A stretch of DNA of 22,554 bases from a virus. The translations under genes were made by a program, and so were the position numbers. The notes beneath the pieces were generated by a model. The model did no database searches. It was not told where the DNA came from and saw nothing but the letters and a program-made list of their open reading frames with translations. This document shows positions 8,535 to 22,283 of this stretch, piece by piece (the stretch's first letter is position 1; each line of letters opens with the position of its first letter). Location of the stretch: positions 1-22,554 of the IMG/VR virus record IMGVR_UViG_3300042523_000392; one strand, given 5' to 3'.

Positions 8535-9229
8535 TATGCGCTACCTCCATCTAAAGTTGCGTAGTTTGGCGCGCTTGTGTCAATCCAGTATGAGTCATAA
8601 TACACAAGAAGGTTGCCAGTATCAGATTTAAACCACAAGTTTCCTGATGATGGCGAACCTGGCGCAGTGTCAGATACTGCCATAACTCCAGAGGCACCCG
8701 TTTCGCCTGCTAAATGGACACTAAAAGATGGGTCAAAGTCTGGTGTCCCAACAGTTACATCAGGGGCAACAGACATATAGTAAGAACCAGAAAAGAAAGA
8801 AATAGCGTAACAAGTACCAAGTATGTAATTACTTGAATCCTCTTCCACCCGTACATAATCGCCAGACGCAAATGCTCCGACGCTACTAACCTTAAAACTC
8901 CAATCGCCAGATTCAGGGTCTTCTTCTGCTAATTCTGCCGTGCCAATAACATAACCAAGACCTTGTGCACCAGTTGGGCCAGTTGCTCCTGTAGGGCCAA
9001 CAGGACCAGTTGTATTTACCCAATTAGTCCCGTTGTACACCAATAATTGGTCTGTAGCAACAGAGGTAATAACAACATCTGTAAGGTCGTTTAATGCCGC
9101 TACTGCTGATCCACCGACAGAAGCCGCCCCAAACTTAGTTCCGTTATATACAAGGGCATCACCATTAGAGGCTCCTGCTGTATCAATTTCAACCCCCTTA
9201 ACAAAGAGGGACTTTAGAAAGTTAGCCAC
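8534..9229 (-). CDS. Tail fibre protein with short collagen-like segment (231 aa)
   Basis: The protein starts MANFLKSLFVKGVEIDTAG and has two LVYNGT-type repeats (26-31 and 63-70), then a collagen-like run of five Gly-X-Y triplets (GPVGPTGATGPTGAQG, 75-90), which normally forms a trimeric stalk. The C-terminal part contains the module GNLWFKSDTGNLLVYYDSYW shared with the next fibre. The start is GTG at 9229, preceded by AAAGGA. Its place directly after the long 413-residue fibre suggests a shaft or connector part of the tail fibre. The collagen block is short, so the stalk would be only a few nanometres long. Confidence 0.87.
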   Translation of the reverse strand: MANFLKSLFVKGVEIDTAGASNGDALVYNGTKFGAASVGGSAVAALNDLTDVVITSVATDQLLVYNGTNWVNTTGPVGPTGATGPTGAQGLGYVIGTAELAEEDPESGDWSFKVSSVGAFASGDYVRVEEDSSNYILGTCYAISFFSGSYYMSVAPDVTVGTPDFDPSFSVHLAGETGASGVMAVSDTAPGSPSSGNLWFKSDTGNLLVYYDSYWIDTSAPNYATLDGGSA

Positions 9230-9249
9230 TGTTGTCCTTTAATGACAGA

Positions 9250-10491
9250 TTAAGCAAGAATGACGACTCGGTACTGGTTTGAAGTGGGGGCAGTGGCAAA
9301 ATATACAGTTGTTGTAGAACTGGTATTAACAATATCAGCGTACACAACTTCTCCTGTGGAAACTTCATATACCGATACGGAAATGTCTGCGGTGCCAAGC
9401 CCATGGGTAAGTGCATAAGAAGTGGCGCTAGTGGCTAAGGTTTCAGCATGCTTCTTCTTTGTCCAAACTGGTGCGCTTGCTCCTGCGGTAAGTACATGTC
9501 CTGAAGTTCCTAACCCAAGGGTGCTTGTTGTTGCAGAACCAGTCTGATAAACAATTGAACCAGCGGCACCACCAGTAACATTGGTGGCAGTTGTAGCAGT
9601 TGAGGCATTGCCCGTGTACTCAGTTGCTGATAATACCTGGGTACCAGCAATTTTAAGTACTTTGCCTGCCGCAAGATCAAGGTTCTCAGAAGAAGTCCAT
9701 GAACTGGTTGCAGACACCCAGTTCCAGGTTTTGTCTCCATCTACACCACCTGCAACAGTGATACCTCCACCATTTGCGGTGCTGTTGGTTGGAGTAGTTA
9801 CTGAACCCAGGACAATGTTTAGATCGTCTACGGTGACAGTAGTGCTATTAATAGTAGTGGTAGTACCGTTGACCACCAAGTCACCAGCGATTGTGGTGGT
9901 GCTATTGGAAGCACCAATATTGACCGCAGTAGCCGCACCAGCAAAGTTGACAGTAGCAACTGTGGTGTTAAGCAAGTCAAAGGAAGAAGAGCCAGTTGTC
10001 AAACTGGTGGTAATGGCTGGTGAGGTGCCAAAAACAAGAGCACCAGAACCAGTCTCATCTGAAATGACACCAGCAAGGGCAGATGAGGTAGTAGCCGCAA
10101 ACTGCCCAAGGGTTCCAGAAGTTACAGCCACTCCCGTGACTGCACCAACGCTTGCGTTGACACTACTAACACCAGTACTTGAAGTTAGGTAGGTAGCGGT
10201 GTCAACTGACCAATTACTAGCACCATCGGTTTTAAGGAAGCCTGCGGTACCCGTGAGGGCGGCAATAGCCGTGAGGTCAGCATCTGCTGGTTGCCAAGTT
10301 CCTGATGCACCAGATGAGAGTTCTACCCAGGCGCTACCGTTGTAGTACTTAAGTTTATTTAACCCGCTGGCGGTATCAAAATATAAGCCACCTAGTTTTG
10401 CACTAGCGGCTGGGGCGGTACCAGTGTTATGAATTACAATATTCTGTAGTTCATTACCAGTTAGATCAATATTTGTAAGAAACTTAGACAT
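9250..10491 (-). CDS. Long tail fibre protein (413 aa)
   Basis: The protein starts MSKFLTNIDLTGNELQN and then GLYFDTASGLNKLKYYNGSA, a module that resembles those in three other fibre genes here. The core is highly Thr/Ser/Ala-rich beta repeats (DLTAIAALTGTAGFLKTDG; GDLVVNGTTTTINSTTV; TEYTGNASTATTATNVTGG), the standard shaft of phage long fibres. The C-terminal 70 residues (ATSATSYALTHGLGTADISV, then SVYEVSTGEVVYADI, ending QYRVVILA) form the characteristic end domain. The start is ATG at 10491 with GAGGT upstream. It is the first and longest of the pure fibre genes in transcription order, so it may be the tail-proximal part. Confidence 0.9.
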   Translation of the reverse strand: MSKFLTNIDLTGNELQNIVIHNTGTAPAASAKLGGLYFDTASGLNKLKYYNGSAWVELSSGASGTWQPADADLTAIAALTGTAGFLKTDGASNWSVDTATYLTSSTGVSSVNASVGAVTGVAVTSGTLGQFAATTSSALAGVISDETGSGALVFGTSPAITTSLTTGSSSFDLLNTTVATVNFAGAATAVNIGASNSTTTIAGDLVVNGTTTTINSTTVTVDDLNIVLGSVTTPTNSTANGGGITVAGGVDGDKTWNWVSATSSWTSSENLDLAAGKVLKIAGTQVLSATEYTGNASTATTATNVTGGAAGSIVYQTGSATTSTLGLGTSGHVLTAGASAPVWTKKKHAETLATSATSYALTHGLGTADISVSVYEVSTGEVVYADIVNTSSTTTVYFATAPTSNQYRVVILA

Positions 10492-11844: not shown

Positions 11845-13125
11845 TTACTGCTTTCGGGTCACTGGGGCGGGCATTGCGAATATGACTGCTGTTGCCGCGA
11901 CTATTGCTCGTCGTGCCCCTACTGAGACTGCTGATCCCGTTGGCACATAATTATCAAATTGTCCTCCGAACACATTAATCTGATCCTGGAATTCTTCTTT
12001 TACATCGTCAGGGGCATCTGTTAGTGCTTCTGAGAGAGCCGAAGCCTGTTCATCAGATAGTTCACTCGGGACGATGGCATCAATAAGTTGCGTTACTTGC
12101 TCATCGGATAGTTCGCTAAGTACTTCTTCGCTAAAGACAGCGGAGATTGATTCCTCGGTTAATTCACCTATATCAATAGATTCTACTAGATTAGTGATTT
12201 CTTCATCAGATAATTCGTCAATTGACGAAACTAGTTCATCTGCTAATTGGTTAATTTCTTCAGTTGTGGGGTTATCAGGTATAACTGTTTCTTCTTCAGG
12301 TACGGTCGTTATAGGTGGCTCTGTACTCTCTGGAATCTCTGGAATCGTCGTAGGTGCAGATGTAACAGTCGGGGGCACACTCGTGCTTGATGTTGTCAGG
12401 GGTGTCGGGAAAAAGGGACTTAAAGTGGTTGTAGGAGTCAGAGAAGTTTGAGGGACCTCCACAGTACCAACAGATTGGCTCGTCGTAGGCATTGTAGAAG
12501 GAGCCACAGTAACCGCAACAGTAGTGCTCGTAATCTCCGTAGTAGTTGGGGAGTTTGTTGTCGTTGAGACTTCCGTAGTTGTCGTTGCCTCGGTGGTCGG
12601 AACTTCCGTTACAGGCACAGTCGTTGTTGGGGCAATAGTAGTACTCGTCGTCGTCGTTGAAGTTGTGGATGTTGTAGTTGGGACCCATGTTGTAGTCGTC
12701 TCCGGAATAGTGGTCGTTGTATTTACGGGATTGCCATTAAATGATAACTCATATTGAATGTTCCAAACAACGCCGTCACGCCAAACATCTGGTTCCCAGC
12801 AACAAGTACCTGCTCGTAAGCGGTAGTTACCTGCTGGTACTTCTAAGTCAATATTAGATTGAAGACCAATGTAATCATCATTAGAAATGATTAATTCCCC
12901 AGTATCGTCGTTGTACAACCAAAGTTGGGGGTCTGACTCAAATCCAGGTGACTGATATGTTTGTGCCAAGAACTGGGTTGGTTCTGAGTATGAAAACCAG
13001 AAGTCGGTAATTTCCGTAATTATTGGGTTCGTATCAGCCTTAGCCGATGGTACCGGAAATATTGCGATGGCTATTAAAGCCCACTGTAGTGATTGTGTGA
13101 TGCGCCGAAATACGGCGCGCTTCAC
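11845..13125 (-). CDS. Secreted Thr-rich mucin-like protein with C-terminal hydrophobic anchor (426 aa)
   Basis: Residues 1-30 are a signal peptide: basic KRAVFRR, hydrophobic ALIAIAIFPVP, then AKA before Asp31, a good signal-peptidase I site. Residues 31-130 form a beta domain resembling PPC/DVUA0089-type modules (DPQLWLYNDDTGELIISNDD, then VPAGNYRLRAG). Residues 135-290 are almost entirely Thr/Ser/Pro/Val, a long extended and perhaps glycosylated stalk. Residues 290-390 are acidic helical repeats built on ELSDEQ-L. The end has a hydrophobic stretch (AIVAATAVIFAMPAPV, about 407-422) then RKQ, a likely membrane anchor. Start is GTG at 13125, GTGA-overlapping the upstream gene. It is not a normal fibre; exposure on the infected cell surface is my inference. 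Thr/Val/Pro linkers are typical of actinobacterial surface proteins. Confidence 0.9.
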   Translation of the reverse strand: MKRAVFRRITQSLQWALIAIAIFPVPSAKADTNPIITEITDFWFSYSEPTQFLAQTYQSPGFESDPQLWLYNDDTGELIISNDDYIGLQSNIDLEVPAGNYRLRAGTCCWEPDVWRDGVVWNIQYELSFNGNPVNTTTTIPETTTTWVPTTTSTTSTTTTSTTIAPTTTVPVTEVPTTEATTTTEVSTTTNSPTTTEITSTTVAVTVAPSTMPTTSQSVGTVEVPQTSLTPTTTLSPFFPTPLTTSSTSVPPTVTSAPTTIPEIPESTEPPITTVPEEETVIPDNPTTEEINQLADELVSSIDELSDEEITNLVESIDIGELTEESISAVFSEEVLSELSDEQVTQLIDAIVPSELSDEQASALSEALTDAPDDVKEEFQDQINVFGGQFDNYVPTGSAVSVGARRAIVAATAVIFAMPAPVTRKQ

Positions 13126-14937: not shown

Positions 14938-14958
14938 TTACTTTTTAGTTACTTTTTA
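14938..14958. repeat. Two 10-bp direct repeats (TTACTTTTTA), AT-rich spacer
   Basis: TTACTTTTTA occurs at 14938-14947 and again at 14949-14958, an 11-nt period that would face the same side of the helix. The second copy includes the stop codon of the ART-like gene. The region is very AT-rich and holds weak -10-like boxes (minus-strand TAATAT and TATAAG), so it may be a promoter/operator for the 88-residue gene. Confidence 0.45.
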
Positions 14959-15507
14959 TATAAAAGATGGACCGTTAATTCCAGTCACTTTTAAGTGTTC
15001 CTCCGGATTGTAGATGGTGACATCTGCGTCTGGACTCCACGCGGCGATACTATCGCGGTTGCCATGATAACCCCAACTTGAGAGTGTGTCAGCAACATTT
15101 TCAGTGTTCTTATTAGATTTTGCCCAGTTATGGACTGCCTGATGACCCTTACCATAATGGCTCATGTCAAAGTGACCACCGTGGTCATCTAACCATTCTT
15201 CAGGATCAGATTTACCATAGTCATGGTAATCATTCAGCGCCTGAGTAACTTGACGCTGACTCTCTAGGTGTGGGTCGTCATTAATGTCCCCATAAATACG
15301 CAATGCACGAGTTGGCTGTGTCGTGACAACATGATCACCCCATGCACGGGCATCAACCTCACGGGTAGTCATGTATGCGCCAGGAATACCTGCGATTACA
15401 TCATCACCTGAGGGTGATATACCGTGCTGAAGGATGCTCTTTACATTGTGTCCGCTGGTTCCATGGAATAGCGTTTGGTCTTTATTAATGTACTCGTGAG
15501 CAGGCAT
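14956..15507 (-). CDS. Putative ADP-ribosyltransferase-like protein (183 aa)
   Basis: The N-terminal half has the layout of ART-fold enzymes: LFHGTS (His15, NAD-binding strand), SILQHGISPS, then GAYMTTREVDARAWG with Tyr45 in the second NAD-pocket strand. A late VTIYNPEEHLKVTGI supplies a candidate catalytic Glu (169 or 170). His-Tyr-Glu is the triad of PARP/diphtheria-type ARTs. In the family, such enzymes attach ADP-ribose to proteins or nucleic acids; in phages they can modify host polymerase or act in defence/anti-defence. The middle is His/Asp-rich. Start ATG at 15507 overlaps the holin-like gene's stop (TAATG). A metabolic ART-like or inactive relative cannot be excluded. Confidence 0.75.
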   Translation of the reverse strand: MPAHEYINKDQTLFHGTSGHNVKSILQHGISPSGDDVIAGIPGAYMTTREVDARAWGDHVVTTQPTRALRIYGDINDDPHLESQRQVTQALNDYHDYGKSDPEEWLDDHGGHFDMSHYGKGHQAVHNWAKSNKNTENVADTLSSWGYHGNRDSIAAWSPDADVTIYNPEEHLKVTGINGPSFI

Positions 15508-15752
15508 TACTCCGTCTTTTCAATTTTGTCAAACACTGAGTTGATCTCTCCAGCGTCTAACTTACCATCATCAATGTATGCCCGCGCAAGTCCTTCAATA
15601 ACTGTGGACATACCACCGATACCAGCCATGAGGCAGGCTTTCCATAATGGTACACCTGCGATAGCGCCCGCTCCAACCACACCAAGTGCTGAGGCGGCAA
15701 ATACTGCCAGAATCCGCATGCTGATGGCTTTAATGTTTGTAATATCGTTCAT
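15507..15752 (-). CDS. Holin-like membrane protein (81 aa)
   Basis: The product has a basic start and two hydrophobic segments (ILAVFAASALGVVGAGAIAG, about 14-33, and PLWKACLMAGIGGMSTVIEG, about 35-54), followed by an acidic C-terminus (IDDGKLDAGEINSVFDKIEK). The pattern LAVFAASALG with ARAYIDDGKL is one I associate with putative holins of actinophages. It overlaps both neighbours as TAATG, so it belongs to the same operon as the diverged paralogue and the ART-like gene. It is one of three holin-type genes in the window; which of them controls lysis is not decided by sequence. Confidence 0.82.
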   Translation of the reverse strand: MNDITNIKAISMRILAVFAASALGVVGAGAIAGVPLWKACLMAGIGGMSTVIEGLARAYIDDGKLDAGEINSVFDKIEKTE

Positions 15753-16432
15753 TATTGGTCCTCTCCAAACAATGATTGCTGTCCCTCAATCGGTTGACCG
15801 CGCTTAGTCTTAGGCGCTTTCTCTTCCTTACCGCGTCGTACACGACCCACCAATGTGTTACGCGCCTCACGAACAACATCGGGGTGAATTGCTTCTACCC
15901 CTTCGTTTCCGTCATACTCGTGCATGTAGTTGCTAAAAAGAGGCATGACTCGCCCTGGTGGTACCGTTGCTCGCTTTGGCACATCGCGTTTGTCAACAAC
16001 ACCAAACTTTGCAAGATGGCGGACAACTCTGTGGCTGTCCCGTGTCAGAGAATGGTCAGGGATTAACGGCAAACCAGCCTCAGTGGCATCCTGGTGGGCA
16101 AGAGCCATGAGACTCATTGCCGTGGTGTTATTACCACCCATAGTTCCAGCCATCATGGACAATTTACGGTGTGCTGGTTTACCATAGTTAGCGAATAGAC
16201 GACCTTGACGGACAGTCTCTGCATTTCTATTTTTATTGTAATCCTTGGGGTAGTAAATTTTGTCTGTTGATTCTTCTTTAGTCCACTGGGTGTCATCGTG
16301 GTGTTCTACTTGAACTAACCCCAAATCTCGCTTACTATGTGGGTCAAACGCAAAATAGGTAGTTTTTGCGGGTGAACGCCTACCACCTGAATCTTGGGCT
16401 GGTGTATGGAATCTACGGTATTCAATCGGCAT
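15752..16432 (-). CDS. Diverged fifth member of the tandem paralogue family (226 aa)
   Basis: Although it starts MPIEYRRFHTPAQ rather than MTRYSR, the block from about 76 (QGRLFANYGKPAHRKLSMMA, then NTTAMSLMALAHQDATEAGL, then LIPDHSLTRDSHRVVRHLAK) aligns position by position with the central block of the four genes upstream. It ends QQSLFGEDQ, a near-perfect sliding-clamp-binding motif, and has a second Q-x-x-L-F at 76-80. The N-terminal FAFDPHSKRDLGLVQVEHH corresponds to the AHDKDG segment of its relatives. Start ATG at 16432 has TACAAT 7 nt upstream and no Shine-Dalgarno. Function is unknown. A basic patch (RVRRGKEEKAPKTKRG) precedes the C-terminal motif. Confidence 0.85.
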   Translation of the reverse strand: MPIEYRRFHTPAQDSGGRRSPAKTTYFAFDPHSKRDLGLVQVEHHDDTQWTKEESTDKIYYPKDYNKNRNAETVRQGRLFANYGKPAHRKLSMMAGTMGGNNTTAMSLMALAHQDATEAGLPLIPDHSLTRDSHRVVRHLAKFGVVDKRDVPKRATVPPGRVMPLFSNYMHEYDGNEGVEAIHPDVVREARNTLVGRVRRGKEEKAPKTKRGQPIEGQQSLFGEDQ

Positions 16433-16439
16433 ACGCCTA

Positions 16440-16445
16440 ATTGTA
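16440..16445 (-). promoter_or_regulatory. Putative -10 box (TACAAT), leaderless
   Basis: TACAAT on the minus strand ends 7 nt before the ATG at 16432; no Shine-Dalgarno is present. This suggests a separate transcript for the paralogue/holin/ART group downstream of the methyltransferase. Confidence 0.45.
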
Positions 16446-16462
16446 CTATATGTAGATACTTC

Positions 16463-17221
16463 CTATTTTTTAAGGATTACCCAAAACTCAAATGTATGCG
16501 GTGTAGTTGGGTACATTGTCTCAATAGAAAAGTTAATTAATCCAAGATCGCGCAAATCATGAATAATGTCGGTAAAACTTTCTGGAGTAAAATACCACGC
16601 ATGGTCGTTACGGAGTTCACCGTTTAAAGCCTCATATTCTTCCATTGCCTGCTTTAAGCGTTCAATACGACCTACACCAGGAAAAATAGGATTATCAGTA
16701 AATAACCCATGGTTACCAGTCCAATGTGACCCAGGATCGTTGTGAGTCATGTATAGGCGGGATTCCAGCAGGGATGACGGTGAATGCCATTTACGCTTCT
16801 CTAGGTGGGCAGAAAGGATATCAGTAATGCGAGACTGATTCATAAAGTGATCAAAGCAGTAGCGATAGTCGGGGACTAATGCAAAGTACCTACCGCCGTC
16901 ATTAAGTAACTTTTCTACCTGCTGTAGGTGACTAACGAAGTCAGGCTGGTGCTCAATCACATGACTACTCAAGACGCTATCAAATGTCTCGTTTACAACC
17001 GATAAATCAGTTGGTTCAGCGACCCAATGAATGTGGGGGATACCCTGCGTAGTAATACCCACCAACCCAGCCTGTTCATGTAACTCTTCTGTAGAGTACA
17101 CATCCACATACTTGACATGTGCTCCATGTAACAGCGGGCTGTTGAATGGGCCAATCTCCAAAGCGCTTTGTTGTGGGACTAGTGCGGCGAATTCACCGCG
17201 GTGAGTAACTTGTTGTGTCAT
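16463..17221 (-). CDS. Class I SAM-dependent methyltransferase, probably glycan-modifying (252 aa)
   Basis: The Rossmann-type core shows motif I ALEIGPFNSPLL (about 20-31), an acidic residue ending the second strand (KYVDVYS, Asp40), motif IV FDSVLSSHVIEHQPD (80-94) and LLNDGGRYFALVPD (105-118). The following YCFDHFMNQSRITDILSAH and HSPSSLLESR pattern resembles methyltransferases of polysaccharide-biosynthesis clusters more than DNA methyltransferases; no DPPY/NPPY motif is seen. I choose ATG 17221 over an upstream TTG at 17227 because TATTGT lies 6 nt before it and no Shine-Dalgarno exists. It interrupts the paralogue array. Possible roles are changing host surface sugars or a virion glycan. 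Confidence 0.88.
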   Translation of the reverse strand: MTQQVTHRGEFAALVPQQSALEIGPFNSPLLHGAHVKYVDVYSTEELHEQAGLVGITTQGIPHIHWVAEPTDLSVVNETFDSVLSSHVIEHQPDFVSHLQQVEKLLNDGGRYFALVPDYRYCFDHFMNQSRITDILSAHLEKRKWHSPSSLLESRLYMTHNDPGSHWTGNHGLFTDNPIFPGVGRIERLKQAMEEYEALNGELRNDHAWYFTPESFTDIIHDLRDLGLINFSIETMYPTTPHTFEFWVILKK

Positions 17222-17227
17222 ACACAA

Positions 17228-17233
17228 ACAATA
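17228..17233 (-). promoter_or_regulatory. Putative -10 box (TATTGT), leaderless
   Basis: TATTGT (TANNNT type) ends 6 nt before the methyltransferase ATG. It is weaker than the other boxes in this window and rests mainly on spacing and absence of a ribosome-binding site. Confidence 0.3.
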
Positions 17234-17237
17234 GCAG

Positions 17238-17969
17238 TTATTCGTCCCACAGGCTCAGTTGTGTATGTTGTTTACCCTTTTTAGAACTTCCGAGTAGGTC
17301 TCGTATACGGGTACGAGCGGCGGGTACTCGGGAAGATAAATCCTCTAAAGCATCCGATCCATGTGTATAAGCACCCATATGTCTATTAGCCAATACTGAT
17401 CCACTGTTCCAAAATGTGTGACTATTCATCACATCTCCTGCGGTTCTACCTTTTGGCATATCCTCAGAAGGAATATGACCCTCTGCGTGTAAACGGTCAA
17501 CTAGGGCACCGCTATGGGCAGACAGGTTTTTATCTGGTACCACATTTTTACCAATAGCCTCAGTAGAAGCATTATTAGCAATACCAATTAAATTCATAGC
17601 AGAAGTCTTACCAGCAAGGCTGTTCTCTGAATACAGTCCAGTTACTACTCTTTTTGCAGGAACATTCCTGTGACCAAACATAACTAACTGCTCACCAGGC
17701 TCTGCATAACGAGTGTAAGGAGTGATATCCAAATTACTTTCATTAACTGGAGTGTCCGTATGCGTCATTTCATCATCCACCACAGGTTTTCCTGTGTGGA
17801 AGTTGCTTTCTTGGGTGGCACTAACCTCTGGATGATGTTGTACAACTAATCTTGAGATAGCATCACCATCTTTATTGTGTGCTAAGTACTCCAAATATGC
17901 ATCATCAGGATTACTTTCTTTATCTGATACATCATATTCTCTATTTACAACGCGCGAATACCTAGTCAT
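17238..17969 (-). CDS. Tandem paralogue family member D (243 aa), unknown function
   Basis: The fourth copy in transcription order starts MTRYSR, with an N-terminal block YLAHNKDGDAISRLVVQHH (about 28-46), a variable acidic linker, then the conserved centre PGEQLVMFGHRNVPAKRVV, LYSENSLAGKTSAMNLIGI, ANNASTEAIGKNVVPDKN, LSAHSGALVDRLHAEGHIP, and a C-terminal helix SSRVPAARTRIRDLLG. It ends TQLSLWDE, close to the bacterial clamp-binding consensus QLSLF. Start ATG at 17969 overlaps the previous stop by 4 nt (ATGA). No enzyme signature or membrane segment is seen. A replication, repair or host-takeover role is possible; a virion role is not excluded. Confidence 0.87.
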   Translation of the reverse strand: MTRYSRVVNREYDVSDKESNPDDAYLEYLAHNKDGDAISRLVVQHHPEVSATQESNFHTGKPVVDDEMTHTDTPVNESNLDITPYTRYAEPGEQLVMFGHRNVPAKRVVTGLYSENSLAGKTSAMNLIGIANNASTEAIGKNVVPDKNLSAHSGALVDRLHAEGHIPSEDMPKGRTAGDVMNSHTFWNSGSVLANRHMGAYTHGSDALEDLSSRVPAARTRIRDLLGSSKKGKQHTQLSLWDE

Positions 17970-18718
17970 TCAAACCCCTCTAACTGGAGTTGTTCAGATT
18001 TAGGCTCTGCATTAAGATTTGGTGCAGATCGCCCCATCGCTTGACGAATACGAGCCTTTGCATGAGGCAATCGTGAGTTTAAGTCTTGGCTCGGGGTCTG
18101 GTTACTGTGGGGATAACGATCAAGTTTGTTTTCTGCATAATTAAAAGTAATACCGTTATCAAATACCCTTCCTGGCATATCCTCAGCAGAAATAGCACCA
18201 GATTTATGTAACTTATCAACTAATGACTTACTACGCGTAGAAAGATTGCTAGATGGTTGTAAAGACCTACCAGTTGTAGTTGTAGAGGCAATATCAGCCA
18301 TACCCACCAAGTTCATAGCGGCTGTCTTACCAGACAAACTGTCACGAGCGTATAACTCATGCACCTGAGATCGTGCTGGTCTGTGGTAAGTTCCAAACAT
18401 TACTAATTGCTCCCCTGACTGAGCGGGGCGAGTTAAACCATCTTGCCAATCAAGGGCAGTATCATCATGTGCCCTCTGACCATCAGCAATTGGTGTAGTT
18501 TCGGCTAATCCTGTGTTTGCATTACGACCATAGATATCCATGGCTGTACTGGTATGACCTGGGTCATGTGCAATAACAGCCATGGCAATGGCTTTACCAG
18601 ACTTGTCATGTGCGAAGTACTGATCCATCCCACCATAACTATCACCCTGTGGCACATAGTCGGATGATCTACCCTGCTCTTTATCACTGGGTGGTACATA
18701 ACGAGAATAGCGAGTCAT
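17966..18718 (-). CDS. Tandem paralogue family member C (250 aa), unknown function
   Basis: This member begins MTRYSRYVPPSDKEQGRSSD, then YFAHDKSGKAIAMAVIAHD, a variable middle, and the conserved block SGEQLVMFGTYHRPARSQV, LYARDSLSGKTAAMNLVGM, ADIASTTTTGRSLQPSSN, LSTRSKSLVDKLHKSGAIS. It ends with LPHAKARIRQAMGRSAPNLN and EQLQLEGFE. The last 40 residues are very similar to those of member A, suggesting recent duplication or gene conversion. The start at 18718 overlaps the previous stop by 4 nt. The N-terminal AHD-x-x-G segment may form a beta hairpin. No known domain was recognised. Confidence 0.87.
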   Translation of the reverse strand: MTRYSRYVPPSDKEQGRSSDYVPQGDSYGGMDQYFAHDKSGKAIAMAVIAHDPGHTSTAMDIYGRNANTGLAETTPIADGQRAHDDTALDWQDGLTRPAQSGEQLVMFGTYHRPARSQVHELYARDSLSGKTAAMNLVGMADIASTTTTGRSLQPSSNLSTRSKSLVDKLHKSGAISAEDMPGRVFDNGITFNYAENKLDRYPHSNQTPSQDLNSRLPHAKARIRQAMGRSAPNLNAEPKSEQLQLEGFE

Positions 18719-19497
18719 TCAAAGCCCTCTAACTGGAGTTGCTCATTCTTAGTCTTAGTCTTAGGACCTTTACCCATTACCTCACGAATATGAGCACGGG
18801 CGGCAGGTACTCGTTCTGTTAAATCTTGGTAACCCTCATGCGATCCATAATCTTCATCTTCTAATATTTTATTAGAATGCCAAAAATCATTTTTATTACT
18901 ATATTTTGGATCAAATTGGAAAGACTTATCAACCGCACCGGACTCAACTAGCCTATTAACTAATGCACCACTGTGGCTAGAAAGATCACGAGATGGTTGT
19001 AGGTGTCTACCAATTCTGGCTTTACTTGCGATGTCAGCCATGCCTAGAAGTGTCATAGCGGCTGTCTTACCAGCCATACTGTCTTTGGAATGCAACAGAC
19101 TAACTGAACTACGAGGTGGTTCGTAGTTATGCCCAAACATAACTAACTGTTCACCAGACTCAGCGGGTCGCGTAAAGCCCCTATCCCATCGTGGGGCATT
19201 ATTACCGTTGTCTGGTGTAATTCCTGAATCATGGGTTCTTTCATTATCAATAATGTCACGGTCAGGGTCTTCCTGAATATTTCTATATTGATCAGTAGAG
19301 TCTGAATATCGTGTACGGGTGGTATCTAAGGATGTGTAACCCTGTACCGACATTCCGGCAATGGCTTTTCCATCTTTATCATGCGCTAAATATCTATGGG
19401 TCCTCTGCTCATGATAATCATGTTCTGGGTCTGGGTTTGAAAAGTCATGCTGAGGATAACCTGGCATACCAGAAATAACTCGTGAGTACCTAGTCAT
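18715..19497 (-). CDS. Tandem paralogue family member B (260 aa), unknown function
   Basis: It starts MTRYSRVISGMPGYPQHDFS, with YLAHDKDGKAIAGMSVQGY, a variable polar linker (about 55-115), then SGEQLVMFGHNYEPPRSSV, LHSKDSMAGKTAAMTLLGM, ADIASKARIGRHLQPSRD, LSSHSGALVNRLVESGAV, then a divergent insert and RVPAARAHIREVMGKG, ending EQLQLEGFE. The central and terminal parts are the family signature. Start ATG at 19497 forms an ATGA overlap with member A. The ED-P motif after GAI, present in A, C and D, is replaced by DKSFQFDPK, so this region is free to vary. Confidence 0.87.
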   Translation of the reverse strand: MTRYSRVISGMPGYPQHDFSNPDPEHDYHEQRTHRYLAHDKDGKAIAGMSVQGYTSLDTTRTRYSDSTDQYRNIQEDPDRDIIDNERTHDSGITPDNGNNAPRWDRGFTRPAESGEQLVMFGHNYEPPRSSVSLLHSKDSMAGKTAAMTLLGMADIASKARIGRHLQPSRDLSSHSGALVNRLVESGAVDKSFQFDPKYSNKNDFWHSNKILEDEDYGSHEGYQDLTERVPAARAHIREVMGKGPKTKTKNEQLQLEGFE

Positions 19498-20405
19498 TCA
19501 AAACCCTCCAGTTGTAACTGTTCGTTCTTAGGCTCAGTATTAAGAGTTGGTACTGAGCGTCCTAAGATTTGGCGAATACGAGCCTTTGCATGCGGTAGGC
19601 GATGATTAAGGTTAATAAGTTCACCATTGTCAAATTTACTTGTATGTTGGGTATCTAAAACTCGTGCGGCATCAGAAAAATCCATGTCGTTACCTTGAAT
19701 TAATTTATCAGGTAAATCTTCCTCAGGAATAGCACCTTTTTTATGTAACTTTTTAACTAAACCTAAACTATGCTCTGACAAGTTATCATCAGGCATTAAG
19801 CCACGACCAAGGGCATCCCTAGATGCATTATCAGCCATACCAAGGATATTCATAGTCGCAAGTTTGCCAGCCGTACTATCTCGGGCATATAAACTCGTTA
19901 TCTGTCTACGAGTAGGCTTATGCTCTATACCAAACATTACTAATTGCTCACCGGGTTTTGCGGGACGAGTGTTAGTCCCATCATGAAAGTAATCGTCTTT
20001 ACCAGGAACTGGCTTAGATTTAGCATCTGTGCGTTCTAAATCAACAATAGGTGTTTGCGCTACATGCACAAAATCACCAGGTGAAGGCATTGGGCGACCA
20101 GGGGGGTTATTTACCACCCTACGGTGAGGAGGGACTAGGTGCTCTAGGTGGTTCGGGGGCTGGCGCACTTGTCTCGTGGGAGCAGTCATGCGAGTGAATG
20201 TCTGACCGTGCGTTTGCGCTACTTGGGCATATACCAGAGAGTTACCATCACGGTCATGTGCCATGTAATCAATAATTCTTCTACGGCGATCTGGTATGTC
20301 CTCGTTACCGCCTACATAGTCATGAGACAGGGCAGTGTAACTACCGGGAGTATCAGGAGATATGCGCGAATACCTAATTGCATCTTCTTTTTTGTCTTTT
20401 GCCAT
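19494..20405 (-). CDS. Tandem paralogue family member A (303 aa), first gene of the array
   Basis: The longest member has a charged extension (MAKDKKEDAIRYSRISPD) in place of MTRYSR, then YMAHDRDGNSLVYAQVAQT, a Pro/Arg-rich insert (about 75-130; LEHLVPPHRRVVNNPPGRP), and the family block PGEQLVMFGIEHKPTRRQI, LYARDSTAGKLATMNILGM, ADNASRDALGRGLMPDDN, LSEHSLGLVKKLHKKGAIP. It ends LPHAKARIRQILGRSVP and EQLQLEGFE. The ATG at 20405 has TAAAAT 6 nt upstream and no Shine-Dalgarno, so a leaderless transcript probably drives the whole four-gene array. Function is unknown. Confidence 0.87.
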   Translation of the reverse strand: MAKDKKEDAIRYSRISPDTPGSYTALSHDYVGGNEDIPDRRRRIIDYMAHDRDGNSLVYAQVAQTHGQTFTRMTAPTRQVRQPPNHLEHLVPPHRRVVNNPPGRPMPSPGDFVHVAQTPIVDLERTDAKSKPVPGKDDYFHDGTNTRPAKPGEQLVMFGIEHKPTRRQITSLYARDSTAGKLATMNILGMADNASRDALGRGLMPDDNLSEHSLGLVKKLHKKGAIPEEDLPDKLIQGNDMDFSDAARVLDTQHTSKFDNGELINLNHRLPHAKARIRQILGRSVPTLNTEPKNEQLQLEGFE

Positions 20406-20411
20406 AGAACT

Positions 20412-20417
20412 ATTTTA
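20412..20417 (-). promoter_or_regulatory. Putative -10 box (TGTAAAAT) for the paralogue operon, leaderless
   Basis: TAAAAT on the minus strand, preceded by TG, ends 6 nt before the ATG of the first paralogue. The same TGTAAAATA occurs before the genes at 13998 and 21790, supporting a shared promoter class. Confidence 0.5.
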
Positions 20418-20427
20418 CATTAAATAG

Positions 20428-21066: not shown

Positions 21067-21081
21067 ATTATATATCAGAAT
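21067..21081 (-). promoter_or_regulatory. Putative promoter: ATTCTGATATATAAT
   Basis: This 15-mer is identical to one before the gene starting at 22240 and contains a consensus TATAAT (21067-21072). It lies between the stop of the ParB-like gene and the Shine-Dalgarno of the 143-residue gene, giving a short leader of about 22 nt. Confidence 0.55.
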
Positions 21082-21533
21082 TAGTTCTCGCTATAGCCAA
21101 AGTACTTTTTTGGTCTTCCGTACATATGTTTGTACTCATCAGTGGTGTTATACATAAAGTTATTATCATGGATCACGGGAATATCTACCTGATGACCTTT
21201 TTCTTCCAAATCTAAGGCGACTGAGAGGCGGTGATGACCATTACCCATACGGAACTTATCCCTGCCAGTATTTGTTAGGACGATGTGGTCCTTGATGCCA
21301 TCAGTTTCAATACCATCATGTAATCCTGAATCTTTAGCCTCTTGAAGTTTCTCTTCATGGAGGTCGCTGTAGGGGTAATCGCGTGGATCATCAATGCCAC
21401 CCCCTGCAGCATCCATAAAACCACTGATTTTGTTCAAAATCTCATGTGGACGCATGAACATCTGCAACTGTTCGGGGTTATCGCCAGGATTTCTAGTCAC
21501 TTTGGCGAATTGTTTGCTGATATGTGCTCTCAT
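21081..21533 (-). CDS. ParB/sulfiredoxin-like protein (150 aa)
   Basis: The C-terminal half has the ParB/Srx signature: DHIVLTNTGRDKFRMGNGHH then RLSVALDLEEKGHQVDIPVI, with GNGHHR at 97-102 giving the conserved G-x-H-R nucleotide-binding turn. The N-terminal part includes EQLQMF (21-26), a clamp-binding-like motif, and a Gly/Asp-rich linker. Known members include ParB (CTPase), sulfiredoxin and phage nucleases; which activity applies is unclear. Start ATG at 21533 overlaps the upstream gene by 4 nt (ATGA). The protein ends in a basic RPKKYFGYSEN. Confidence 0.82.
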   Translation of the reverse strand: MRAHISKQFAKVTRNPGDNPEQLQMFMRPHEILNKISGFMDAAGGGIDDPRDYPYSDLHEEKLQEAKDSGLHDGIETDGIKDHIVLTNTGRDKFRMGNGHHRLSVALDLEEKGHQVDIPVIHDNNFMYNTTDEYKHMYGRPKKYFGYSEN

Positions 21534-21817: not shown

Positions 21818-22240
21818 TTACTCAGAGCGTGGATATGCAGGATTTTCATTATAACGGTTATAATGTATGGGTAAACCATCCACTTGATCTTTTTTTGTAT
21901 AAGTAATAGGTATAAATGAGTGATCATCAGCGGATGCCACCCTGTGGTACCCATTCTTGATTTCTATGGTCCTACCAGATACACCTAGTTCTACGGGATT
22001 TACAATGCCATGTCTCTGTACGCTTTTATATACTCCACTATTAATTGCCTCAATACCCTTACGATCCCAAAATTCATCCTCAGGTGTCGTGTAACGCCGT
22101 TCATTTGTATATGGGTCTCGGATCGTACGGCTACCTGCATCTTCCACATCAGCAATATCTAGGTCATTGTCTACTGGTAGTGAGCGCAACCAACTCTTTG
22201 GCATAAACAGTTGATCATTTAAGTGGTGGAATGCTGCCAT
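21818..22240 (-). CDS. ParB/sulfiredoxin-like protein (140 aa)
   Basis: The segment YKSVQRHGIVNPVELGVSG then RTIEIKNGYHRVASADDHSF and IPITYTKK matches the ParB/Srx fold: a helix predicting sites, a short strand pair, the NGYHR turn (96-100) and a following strand. The N-terminal 50 residues are Asp/Arg-rich and unassigned. Family members bind or hydrolyse nucleotides, or cut DNA; role here unknown. The ATG at 22240 has TATAAT 6 nt upstream and no Shine-Dalgarno, so it is probably leaderless. It is the first gene of the minus-strand block after the G-rich spacer. Confidence 0.82.
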   Translation of the reverse strand: MAAFHHLNDQLFMPKSWLRSLPVDNDLDIADVEDAGSRTIRDPYTNERRYTTPEDEFWDRKGIEAINSGVYKSVQRHGIVNPVELGVSGRTIEIKNGYHRVASADDHSFIPITYTKKDQVDGLPIHYNRYNENPAYPRSE

Positions 22241-22246
22241 TTTCTA

Positions 22247-22261
22247 ATTATATATCAGAAT
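22247..22261 (-). promoter_or_regulatory. Putative promoter (ATTCTGATATATAAT), leaderless
   Basis: A perfect TATAAT (22247-22252) ends 6 nt before the ATG at 22240. The 15-mer is identical to that at 21067-21081. No clear -35 is seen, so an extended or phage-specific upstream element (CCCTATTCT) may replace it. Confidence 0.6.
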
Positions 22262-22283
22262 AGGGCTACATTTGGGCGAATTA

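What the first reader, a model, noticed from the sequence alone, without database searches (positions are those of the whole stretch)
15752..20405. A five-member paralogue array of unknown function in a phage late operon
Seen: four genes in a row (A-D) share an N-terminal AHD-x-x-G block, a centre built on GEQLVMFG, an LYA-x-DS-x-AGK-x-A-MN-x-x-GMA-x-x-AS block, an LS-x-HS-x-x-LV helix and a C-terminal helix plus QLQLEGFE-like end; each start overlaps the previous stop by exactly 4 nt. A fifth, more diverged copy (E) follows after a methyltransferase. Linkers differ strongly between copies while the blocks stay constant. Known: tandem duplication kept in a compact phage genome implies selection for several variants, as in multi-target inhibitors or hetero-oligomers. 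Inference: an undescribed host-takeover, anti-defence or virion family.
Basis: partly seen in the sequence, partly recalled or inferred. Interest (0 to 1): 0.82.

Follow-up and report, generated by a model that had tools for sequence, protein, structure and literature searches.

The report
Phage gene array with clamp-like tags
An uncultured virus of aquatic bacteria carries five related copies of an unnamed gene whose proteins look like worn-down acetyltransferases bearing short tags that resemble the peptides bacterial proteins use to grip the DNA replication clamp, which suggests, but does not prove, a set of host-takeover proteins.

Summary
In detail: A-D are tandem paralogues joined by 4-nt overlaps; E is a diverged homologue (HMM E 6e-9). 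No Pfam, NCBIfam or PHROG family covers them. AlphaFold models of D (pLDDT 79) and E (66) share one topology and retrieve GNAT acetyltransferase folds (best Z 8.6 and 8.4). The usual acetyl-CoA loop is absent (0 of 26 homologues): GNAT-like, perhaps inactive. The best-conserved site is a Qxx[LM]F peptide in the variable linker (26 of 26; QLVMF in A-D), echoed in most C-terminal tails (22 of 26 relaxed, 5 of 26 strict). It resembles the beta-clamp-binding motif and also occurs in unrelated proteins of these phages. ART-like and ParB-like neighbours, and metallopeptidase-like ones in relatives, recall the 'polyvalent protein' arsenal that phages are thought to inject. Best reading: solo GNAT-like effectors that dock on the host sliding clamp. 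Fold likely (about 0.85), shared peptide partner plausible (about 0.7), clamp as partner unproven (about 0.45). Binding, packaging and acetylation were not testable. New variant of a known kind.

The parts
19494..20405 (-). Gene A (303 aa), first of the array; QLVMF at 19932-19946, tail QLQLEGF at 19500-19520
18715..19497 (-). Gene B (260 aa); QLVMF at 19135-19149, tail QLQLEGF at 18721-18741
17966..18718 (-). Gene C (250 aa); QLVMF at 18395-18409, tail QLQLEGF at 17972-17992
17238..17969 (-). Gene D (243 aa), modelled as a GNAT-like fold; QLVMF at 17676-17690, tail QLSLW at 17247-17261 in a low-confidence (probably disordered) C-terminus
16463..17227 (-). Class I SAM methyltransferase between D and E; relative L011 (G002) has an unrelated 212-aa gene in that place, so it is not taken as part of the array
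15752..16432 (-). Gene E (226 aa), diverged member, same predicted topology; centre QGRLF at 16193-16207, tail QQSLF at 15767-15781
21081..21533 (-). ParB-like protein (150 aa, weak profile match, E 0.019) with NPEQLQMF near its N-terminus (QLQMF at 21456-21470); unrelated carrier of the same peptide
14956..15507 (-). ADP-ribosyltransferase-like gene (183 aa; PARP E 0.0032, below cut-off), neighbour in the module
21818..22240 (-). Module protein (140 aa) with the tag-like start MAAFHHLNDQLF and a promoter-like site just upstream
20412..20427 (-). Promoter-like site (AATGTAAAAT) just upstream of A; similar sites at 21067-21082 and 22247-22262

Best explanation
A-E are five members of one protein family with a diverged GNAT (acetyltransferase) fold that has probably lost the usual acetyl-CoA loop. 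A variable insertion between the N-terminal strands and the strand before the long helix carries an invariant Qxx[LM]F peptide, and most members carry a second, similar peptide in a floppy C-terminal tail. I propose that these are beta-clamp-binding peptides: early in infection (made at once from host-like promoters, or injected with the DNA) the proteins dock on the host sliding clamp DnaN. With two peptides each, one protein could reach both pockets of the clamp dimer and block host replication, which would spare the phage because it encodes its own family A polymerase, primase and helicase and no bacterial-type clamp was found in its relatives. Alternatively the clamp is a landing place for the GNAT-like domain. 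Several variants are kept because they differ in peptide strength, linker reach or partner. Shown: paralogy, purifying selection, predicted fold, conservation of the peptide, own replication genes. Inferred: clamp binding, timing, delivery and effect on the host.
For: Fold: models of D and E. Foldseek's first PDB rows for D are M. tuberculosis ICL2 with acetyl-CoA and acetyltransferases (E 0.03, probability 0.89-0.97 in the first four rows). VIA's best are Z 8.6 over 112 residues at 4.3 A for D (an aminoglycoside acetyltransferase) and Z 8.4 over 98 residues at 2.7 A for E (Elp3, whose acetyltransferase domain is recalled). The best viral structural match of both is the same uncharacterised phage protein (TM 0.39-0.46). 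Peptide: across 26 homologues, down to 19% identity to D, the invariant columns are M1, the Q and F of Qxx[LM]F, and L, S, G of the core. Centre: 26 of 26, strict Q-aliphatic-x-[LM]-[FL] in 21. Tail: 22 of 26 relaxed, 5 of 26 strict, against 0.17 and 0.08 from shuffled tails. Distant tails read QLKLF, QLQLDL, QLSLEL, QLSMPL, QLTLPGF, which include both the five- and the six-residue clamp forms (consensus from PMC11139829, passages). Unrelated proteins carry it: a 465-aa protein downstream of the terminase ends GQLTLF, a 381-aa metallopeptidase-like protein of G009 ends QLKLFED. Q[LM]x[LM]F falls in the last 13 residues in 5 of 533 protein clusters; the other 59 arrangements of the same letters reach at most 2. 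A family A polymerase is in 11 of 11 related records; G001 also has a primase and a DnaB-like helicase; the bacterial clamp domain PF02768 is in 0 of 13 records.
Against: No binding data. Among A-E only the centre peptides of A-D fit the strict clamp consensus; E's centre (QGRLF) and all five tails (QLQLEGF, QLSLW, QQSLF) deviate, and Trp in place of Phe weakens binding in one measured case (PMC11139829). The relaxed tail pattern was written after the tails had been seen, and the 26 rows are related. The centre peptide in D is modelled with fair confidence (block means 82-84), so it may be structural. Counted anywhere in the proteins the motif is not unusual (8 of 533 clusters, tied with another arrangement), and one of those 8 is the endolysin core. 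G007 and G008 lack the excess. Four of 26 members have no tail motif in their last 16 residues. No GNAT by sequence: Pfam, PF00583 and PF13508 searches and a profile comparison with Alice gp113 were negative at the array. Bridging of the clamp dimer has no structural support here.
Confidence: 0.42

Rival explanations
1. A-E are active acyltransferases that modify host proteins (as Rac of phiKMV-like phages is reported to act on RNA polymerase alpha) using a non-canonical CoA site; the Qxx[LM]F peptide is a structural lip of the active site and the paralogues have different substrates.
For: GNAT-like fold. Phage GNATs that act on the host are published (PMC7552054, abstract and outline seen; PMC7824862, passages). 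Solo GNATs near late genes of mycobacteriophages are described (PMC5512222, passages). A basic residue is kept at the loop (GK, AR, SR, GR and the like) in most rows.
Against: [QR]xxGx[GA] in 0 of 26; the tail copies and the copies in unrelated proteins are not explained.
Confidence: 0.2
2. The Qxx[LM]F peptides are sorting signals that bind a phage head partner, so that A-E, the ParB-like and other proteins are packaged and injected; the array supplies several internal head proteins.
For: The motif ends a 465-aa protein downstream of the terminase. Looser matches occur in head-module proteins of relatives: QQRLF in a scaffold-like protein of G005, QLALL or QLGLL in such proteins of L170, L172 and L175, QQTMF in a 133-aa protein after the terminase; 'scaffold-like' is inferred from gene order. 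Polyvalent proteins are predicted to be packaged (PMC5512222, passages). Several module proteins share N-terminal tag-like starts.
Against: Phages with a related terminase lack the motif excess (G007, G008). The five- and six-residue alternation matches a known clamp peptide.
Confidence: 0.22
3. The centre motif is only a conserved strand or turn of the fold and the tails are chance or simple acidic ends; A-E are hetero-oligomeric structural or regulatory proteins.
For: Block means of 82-84 pLDDT around the motif in D; relatedness inflates the counts; strict tails are few (5 of 26).
Against: In E the motif region is low confidence (block mean 49). Distant members have clamp-type tails of different forms. 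The C-terminal excess over letter permutations spans unrelated clusters.
Confidence: 0.16

Closest known systems
GNAT (GCN5-related N-acetyltransferase) fold proteins
   Same: Predicted topology of D and E; top structural matches of both models
   Different: No sequence match; canonical acetyl-CoA loop absent in 26 of 26; variable insertion with a Qxx[LM]F peptide
Solo GNATs of mycobacteriophages (Alice gp113) and GNATs of polyvalent proteins (Iyer et al. 2017, PMC5512222)
   Same: Small GNAT-like proteins encoded with structural genes of tailed phages of Actinobacteria; ART, ParB and metallopeptidase companions
   Different: No detectable profile similarity to gp113 (hhalign probability 0.2); array of up to five; the word 'clamp' does not occur in that paper's main text
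Beta-clamp-binding proteins (Pol IV, Hda, Pol III alpha and others)
   Same: Q-aliphatic-x-[LM]-[FL] or Q-aliphatic-x-[LM]-x-[FL] peptides in linkers and C-terminal tails (PMC11139829, passages)
   Different: Not known as clamp partners; tails in the window deviate from the strict consensus; binding untested
Twort Gp168 (phage inhibitor of the clamp)
   Same: Phage protein that acts on DnaN to stop host replication, as proposed here
   Different: Gp168 sits in the DNA channel, not in the peptide pocket (PMC11139829, passages)
phiKMV-like Rac
   Same: Phage GNAT-type protein acting on the host
   Different: Target is RNA polymerase alpha (PMC7552054, abstract); no array or clamp-like peptide mentioned in what I saw

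Membership tests
GNAT acetyltransferases | GNAT fold | tested here: met
   AlphaFold models of D and E; best VIA matches Z 8.6 and 8.4. Z only just exceeds the level typical of models without relatives, and no Foldseek PDB match for D has E below 0.001; the agreement of two models and of nearly all listed rows is what persuades.
GNAT acetyltransferases | acetyl-CoA pyrophosphate loop [QR]xxGx[GA] (motif recalled) | tested here: not met
   0 of 26 homologues in the 45 residues after the centre motif; hence not filed as an acetyltransferase
GNAT acetyltransferases | sequence profile match | tested here: not met
   No GNAT family among the matches of 26 members in Pfam or NCBIfam; PF00583 and PF13508 give no match at the array in 22 records
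Beta-clamp-binding proteins | Q-aliphatic-x-[LM]-[FL] or Q-aliphatic-x-[LM]-x-[FL] | tested here: inconclusive
   Centre 21 of 26 strict (A-D yes, E no); tail 5 of 26 strict, none of them in the window
Beta-clamp-binding proteins | physical binding to DnaN | not testable with these tools
   No complex prediction or binding assay available
Polyvalent proteins | 2-15 domains in one polypeptide | tested here: not met
   A-E are 226-303 aa and the models show one globular domain; the source paper does describe solo versions
Polyvalent proteins | domain repertoire ART, ParB, zincin, GNAT in terminase-portal phages | tested here: inconclusive
   In relatives ART-PolyVal E 5e-5, ParB_N E 0.031, M78 E 0.0016 and DUF6782 E 0.004, all below curated cut-offs; window PARP-like E 0.0032 and ParB-like PHROG E 0.019
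Polyvalent proteins | packaged in the virion and injected | not testable with these tools
   Needs proteomics
Anti-phage defence families (PADLOC) | profile match | tested here: inconclusive
   Two marginal matches among ten proteins, E 0.0083 (E) and 0.013 (C); the library covers defence, not counter-defence

The most novel reading that the evidence does not exclude
A group of uncultured actinophages tags many of its unrelated takeover proteins (GNAT-like arrays, ParB-like, metallopeptidase-like, a 465-aa protein downstream of the terminase) with clamp-binding peptides, so that the host sliding clamp is the common landing platform of an effector set; the GNAT-like array consists of non-catalytic, two-peptide proteins that bridge both pockets of the clamp and shut off host replication, each paralogue tuned to a different competitor or clamp variant.
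Probability: 0.25. Interest if true: 0.85.

Novelty: new variant of a known kind. Interest (0 to 1): 0.6.

Why it matters
If the clamp reading is right, it gives a directly testable partner for a family with no annotation, a natural set of clamp-directed phage proteins (the clamp is studied as an antibiotic target, PMC11139829), and a rule for finding further effectors in aquatic phages: look for QLxLF or QLxLxL at C-termini. It would also suggest why a compact genome keeps four or five diverged copies of one fold. Even if the partner is something else, a short peptide shared by unrelated neighbours points to one common receptor.

Tried and rejected
Sequence searches that led nowhere: PHROGs and Pfam on A-E; Pfam, NCBIfam and PHROGs on 26 homologues; profile against PDB sequences gave only MecI at E 0.74 and 1.3 and nothing for A5; tblastn in 50,697 phage records gave nothing for A, three chance-level matches at E 0.6-1 for one diverged member and nothing for two others; a scan of 84,980 bacterial and archaeal species genomes gave 163 pattern matches but no relative (limited to the two peptide patterns used). 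PADLOC was unhelpful.

A phage-encoded clamp as the partner: PF02768 absent from 13 related records (it rings in 11 of 14 control genomes). PF02916 (T4-type clamp) was also negative, but it rang in no control, so that says nothing. PCNA-type clamps were not searched.

Link to Alice gp113 (a published solo GNAT): hhalign probability 0.2, rejected at sequence level; its plasmid relatives were two weak matches.

The motif counted anywhere in proteins is not distinctive, so I rely on C-terminal position and conservation. The endolysin QLxMF (28 of 51 members of its cluster) is part of a conserved enzyme stretch and was set aside in the argument, though it stays in the counts; the QQLLF of the DNA polymerases likewise.

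A shared N-terminal tag (M.A...L..Q[FL]) was defined after it was seen, so its count (one representative per cluster: 7 hits against a shuffled mean of 0.71, maximum 4 in 200) is suggestive only. A-E do not carry it. The promoter-like pattern was also taken from the window first (5 matches against 1.01 expected, 1 of 100 shuffles with 5 or more).

Methyltransferase as part of the system: not kept, because G002/L011 has another gene in that place.

Full report
What the window is. The record is a 22,554-base virus record, the whole of what is held. Its terminase is 46% identical to that of Streptomyces phage BRock, and longer records of what appears to be the same virus exist (G001, 91 kb; loci L007-L009 carry A-E with identical scores and lengths). 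G001 has a family A DNA polymerase, a primase, a DnaB-like helicase and a recombinase; the polymerase is present in 11 of 11 related records searched. An actinobacterial host is likely, but that is inferred from the terminase only.

The observation. A-D are tandem paralogues with 4-nt overlaps; E is a diverged homologue beyond a methyltransferase. The core is 46-57% identical between A, B, C and D, the linker 17-28% with many gaps. The family occurs in 15 of 41 related virus records (E up to 0.1, weakest best match 2e-19; many records are fragments, so a zero is not an absence): five members in G001, G014 and G015 (the window's own virus), four in G002, G004, G017 and G018, three in G003 and G016, two in G005 and G020, one in G013, G019, G031 and G039. 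In a tree of 26 rows the A line (100/99) and D line (100/99) have orthologues in other phages, the C line too with weaker support (83/96); B has none among these rows. dN/dS is 0.16-0.5 in eight of nine orthologue pairs; the ninth pair is nearly identical and gives 0.73. In L012 the last array gene has a C body with a D tail, the switch falling in the CAACT shared by both at the motif: apparently a gene fused by recombination between neighbours.

The fold. With 26 aligned homologues AlphaFold gives D at pLDDT 79, pTM 0.73, with residues 233-239 below 50; with 22, E at pLDDT 66, pTM 0.63. The order of elements is alike: N-terminal strands, a variable insertion, a long strand, a long helix, a second helix, and a C-terminal helix followed by a floppy tail. 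Foldseek against the PDB puts M. tuberculosis ICL2 (with acetyl-CoA) and acetyltransferases first for D, but only at E 0.03 (none at 0.001 or below). VIA gives Z 8.6 for D (5f46_B, 112 residues, 4.3 A) and 8.4 for E (5l7l, Elp3, 98 residues, 2.7 A). Most listed rows are acetyltransferases by title; some titles do not say so (for D 7ypu, 7ypv, 3i9s and 1z4e; for E the Elp3/Elp123 entries, 1z4e, the At1g77540 entries and ICL2; that Elp3 and ICL2 hold GNAT-type domains is recalled). D and E also share the best viral match, A0A6J5QYR8, at modest TM-scores of 0.39-0.46. I take the GNAT-like fold as probable (about 0.85), although no sequence method sees it. The loop that holds acetyl-CoA, [QR]xxGx[GA] (recalled), is absent in 26 of 26, so enzyme activity is doubtful.

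The motif. In alignments reaching down to 17-19% identity to their first row the invariant columns are M1, the Q and F of Qxx[LM]F, and three core residues. The centre motif is present in 26 of 26; 21 fit the strict clamp consensus Q-aliphatic-x-[LM]-[FL]. Tails fit a relaxed form in 22 of 26 and the strict form in 5 of 26; shuffling the last 30 residues gives 0.17 and 0.08. The rows are related and the relaxed form was written after seeing them, so these counts overstate. More telling is that distant members have different tails (QLKLF, QLQLDL, QLSLEL, QLSMPL, QLTLPGF), the alternation of five- and six-residue forms known for clamp peptides (PMC11139829, passages). In the window the centre motifs of A-D are strict; E's centre and all five tails deviate.

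Unrelated carriers. The ParB-like gene at 21081-21533 has NPEQLQMF; in G011 nearly the same leader (SKQF...TRNPGDNPxQL) sits on a 545-aa metallopeptidase-like protein. A 465-aa protein downstream of the terminase ends GQLTLF, and 9 of the 14 members of its cluster hold the motif. G009 has a 381-aa metallopeptidase-like protein ending QLKLFED. With a looser form of the motif the predicted proteins of G001, G002 and G003 hold 9 each against 1.05, 1.1 and 0.8 expected from shuffles; G011 6 against 1.45; G005 4 against 1.3; G009 3 against 1.15; G008 2 against 1.3; G007 1 against 0.8. In the last 13 residues Q[LM]x[LM]F occurs in 5 of 533 clusters; the best other arrangement of the same letters in 2. 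Anywhere in the protein it is 8 of 533, tied with one other arrangement. Looser matches also occur in head-module proteins of relatives (QQRLF, QLALL, QLGLL, QQTMF), which fits a packaging signal as well.

Neighbourhood and timing. The module holds ParB-like and ART-like genes and, in relatives, metallopeptidase-like ones, as in the polyvalent-protein repertoire that is predicted to enter the host with the DNA (PMC5512222, passages). In G001 it opens the structural-gene strand next to genes on the other strand. TATAAT/TAAAAT-like sites begin 15-38 bases before four module genes (those ending upstream at 22240, 21790, 21037 and A) and 39 before a fifth, so immediate expression by host RNA polymerase is possible; this is inference. 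Freshwater phages with ADP-ribosyltransferases, some predicted to infect Actinobacteria, have been reported (PMC6802176, passages).

Mechanism and probability. Best account: GNAT-like, perhaps inactive, proteins that dock on the host sliding clamp through two peptides. Fold about 0.85; a shared peptide partner about 0.7; the clamp as that partner about 0.45; replication block in place of mere tethering about 0.25. One published phage protein acts on DnaN, Twort Gp168, but in the DNA channel. My searches listed no paper whose title or shown abstract describes clamp motifs in such arrays (listings only, apart from the passages cited; one search lists a paper on a phage DNA ligase that holds the term, not read). 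Subscription papers are mostly not held.

Verdict. A real, undescribed, selectively maintained family with a recognisable predicted fold and an unusual shared peptide. Not an acetyltransferase by the usual test, not a multidomain polyvalent protein, and not a proven clamp binder.

Noticed in passing
window 22240 and 15507 (starts, minus strand); L164 2019-2549 and 9236-9814; L165 13190-13612; G009 83307-84473; G011 8744-9280, 9287-9730 and 9727-10209: Several module proteins that BLAST does not join share a start like MSAxxxLxxQF, possibly a targeting or packaging signal. The pattern was defined after the fact; 15507 fits it only loosely.
   Followed up: partly
window 20412-20427, 21067-21082, 22247-22262 (minus strand): TATAAT/TAAAAT-like sites, some with CTATTCT upstream, 15-38 bases before start codons; suggests host-type promoters, possibly leaderless, at module genes.
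   Followed up: partly
G001 44058-45455 (L016 12499-13896): A 465-aa unannotated protein downstream of the terminase with C-terminal QLTLF; proteins in the same place in relatives end QLSLF or QLKLF.
   Followed up: partly
L012 6192-6929: C-type body with a D-type tail, apparently a chimera made by recombination within the motif codons.
   Followed up: yes
window 11845-13125: Thr/Ser-rich protein with a signal-peptide-like start, probably exported; similar proteins are seen in relatives.
   Followed up: no
window 14956-15507: ADP-ribosyltransferase-like gene (LFHGTSGHNVKSILQHGI), weak PARP match.
   Followed up: partly
L011 5764-6402 versus window 16463-17227: The slot between D and E holds an unrelated 212-aa gene in L011/G002 and a methyltransferase in the window: an exchange site.
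   Followed up: no
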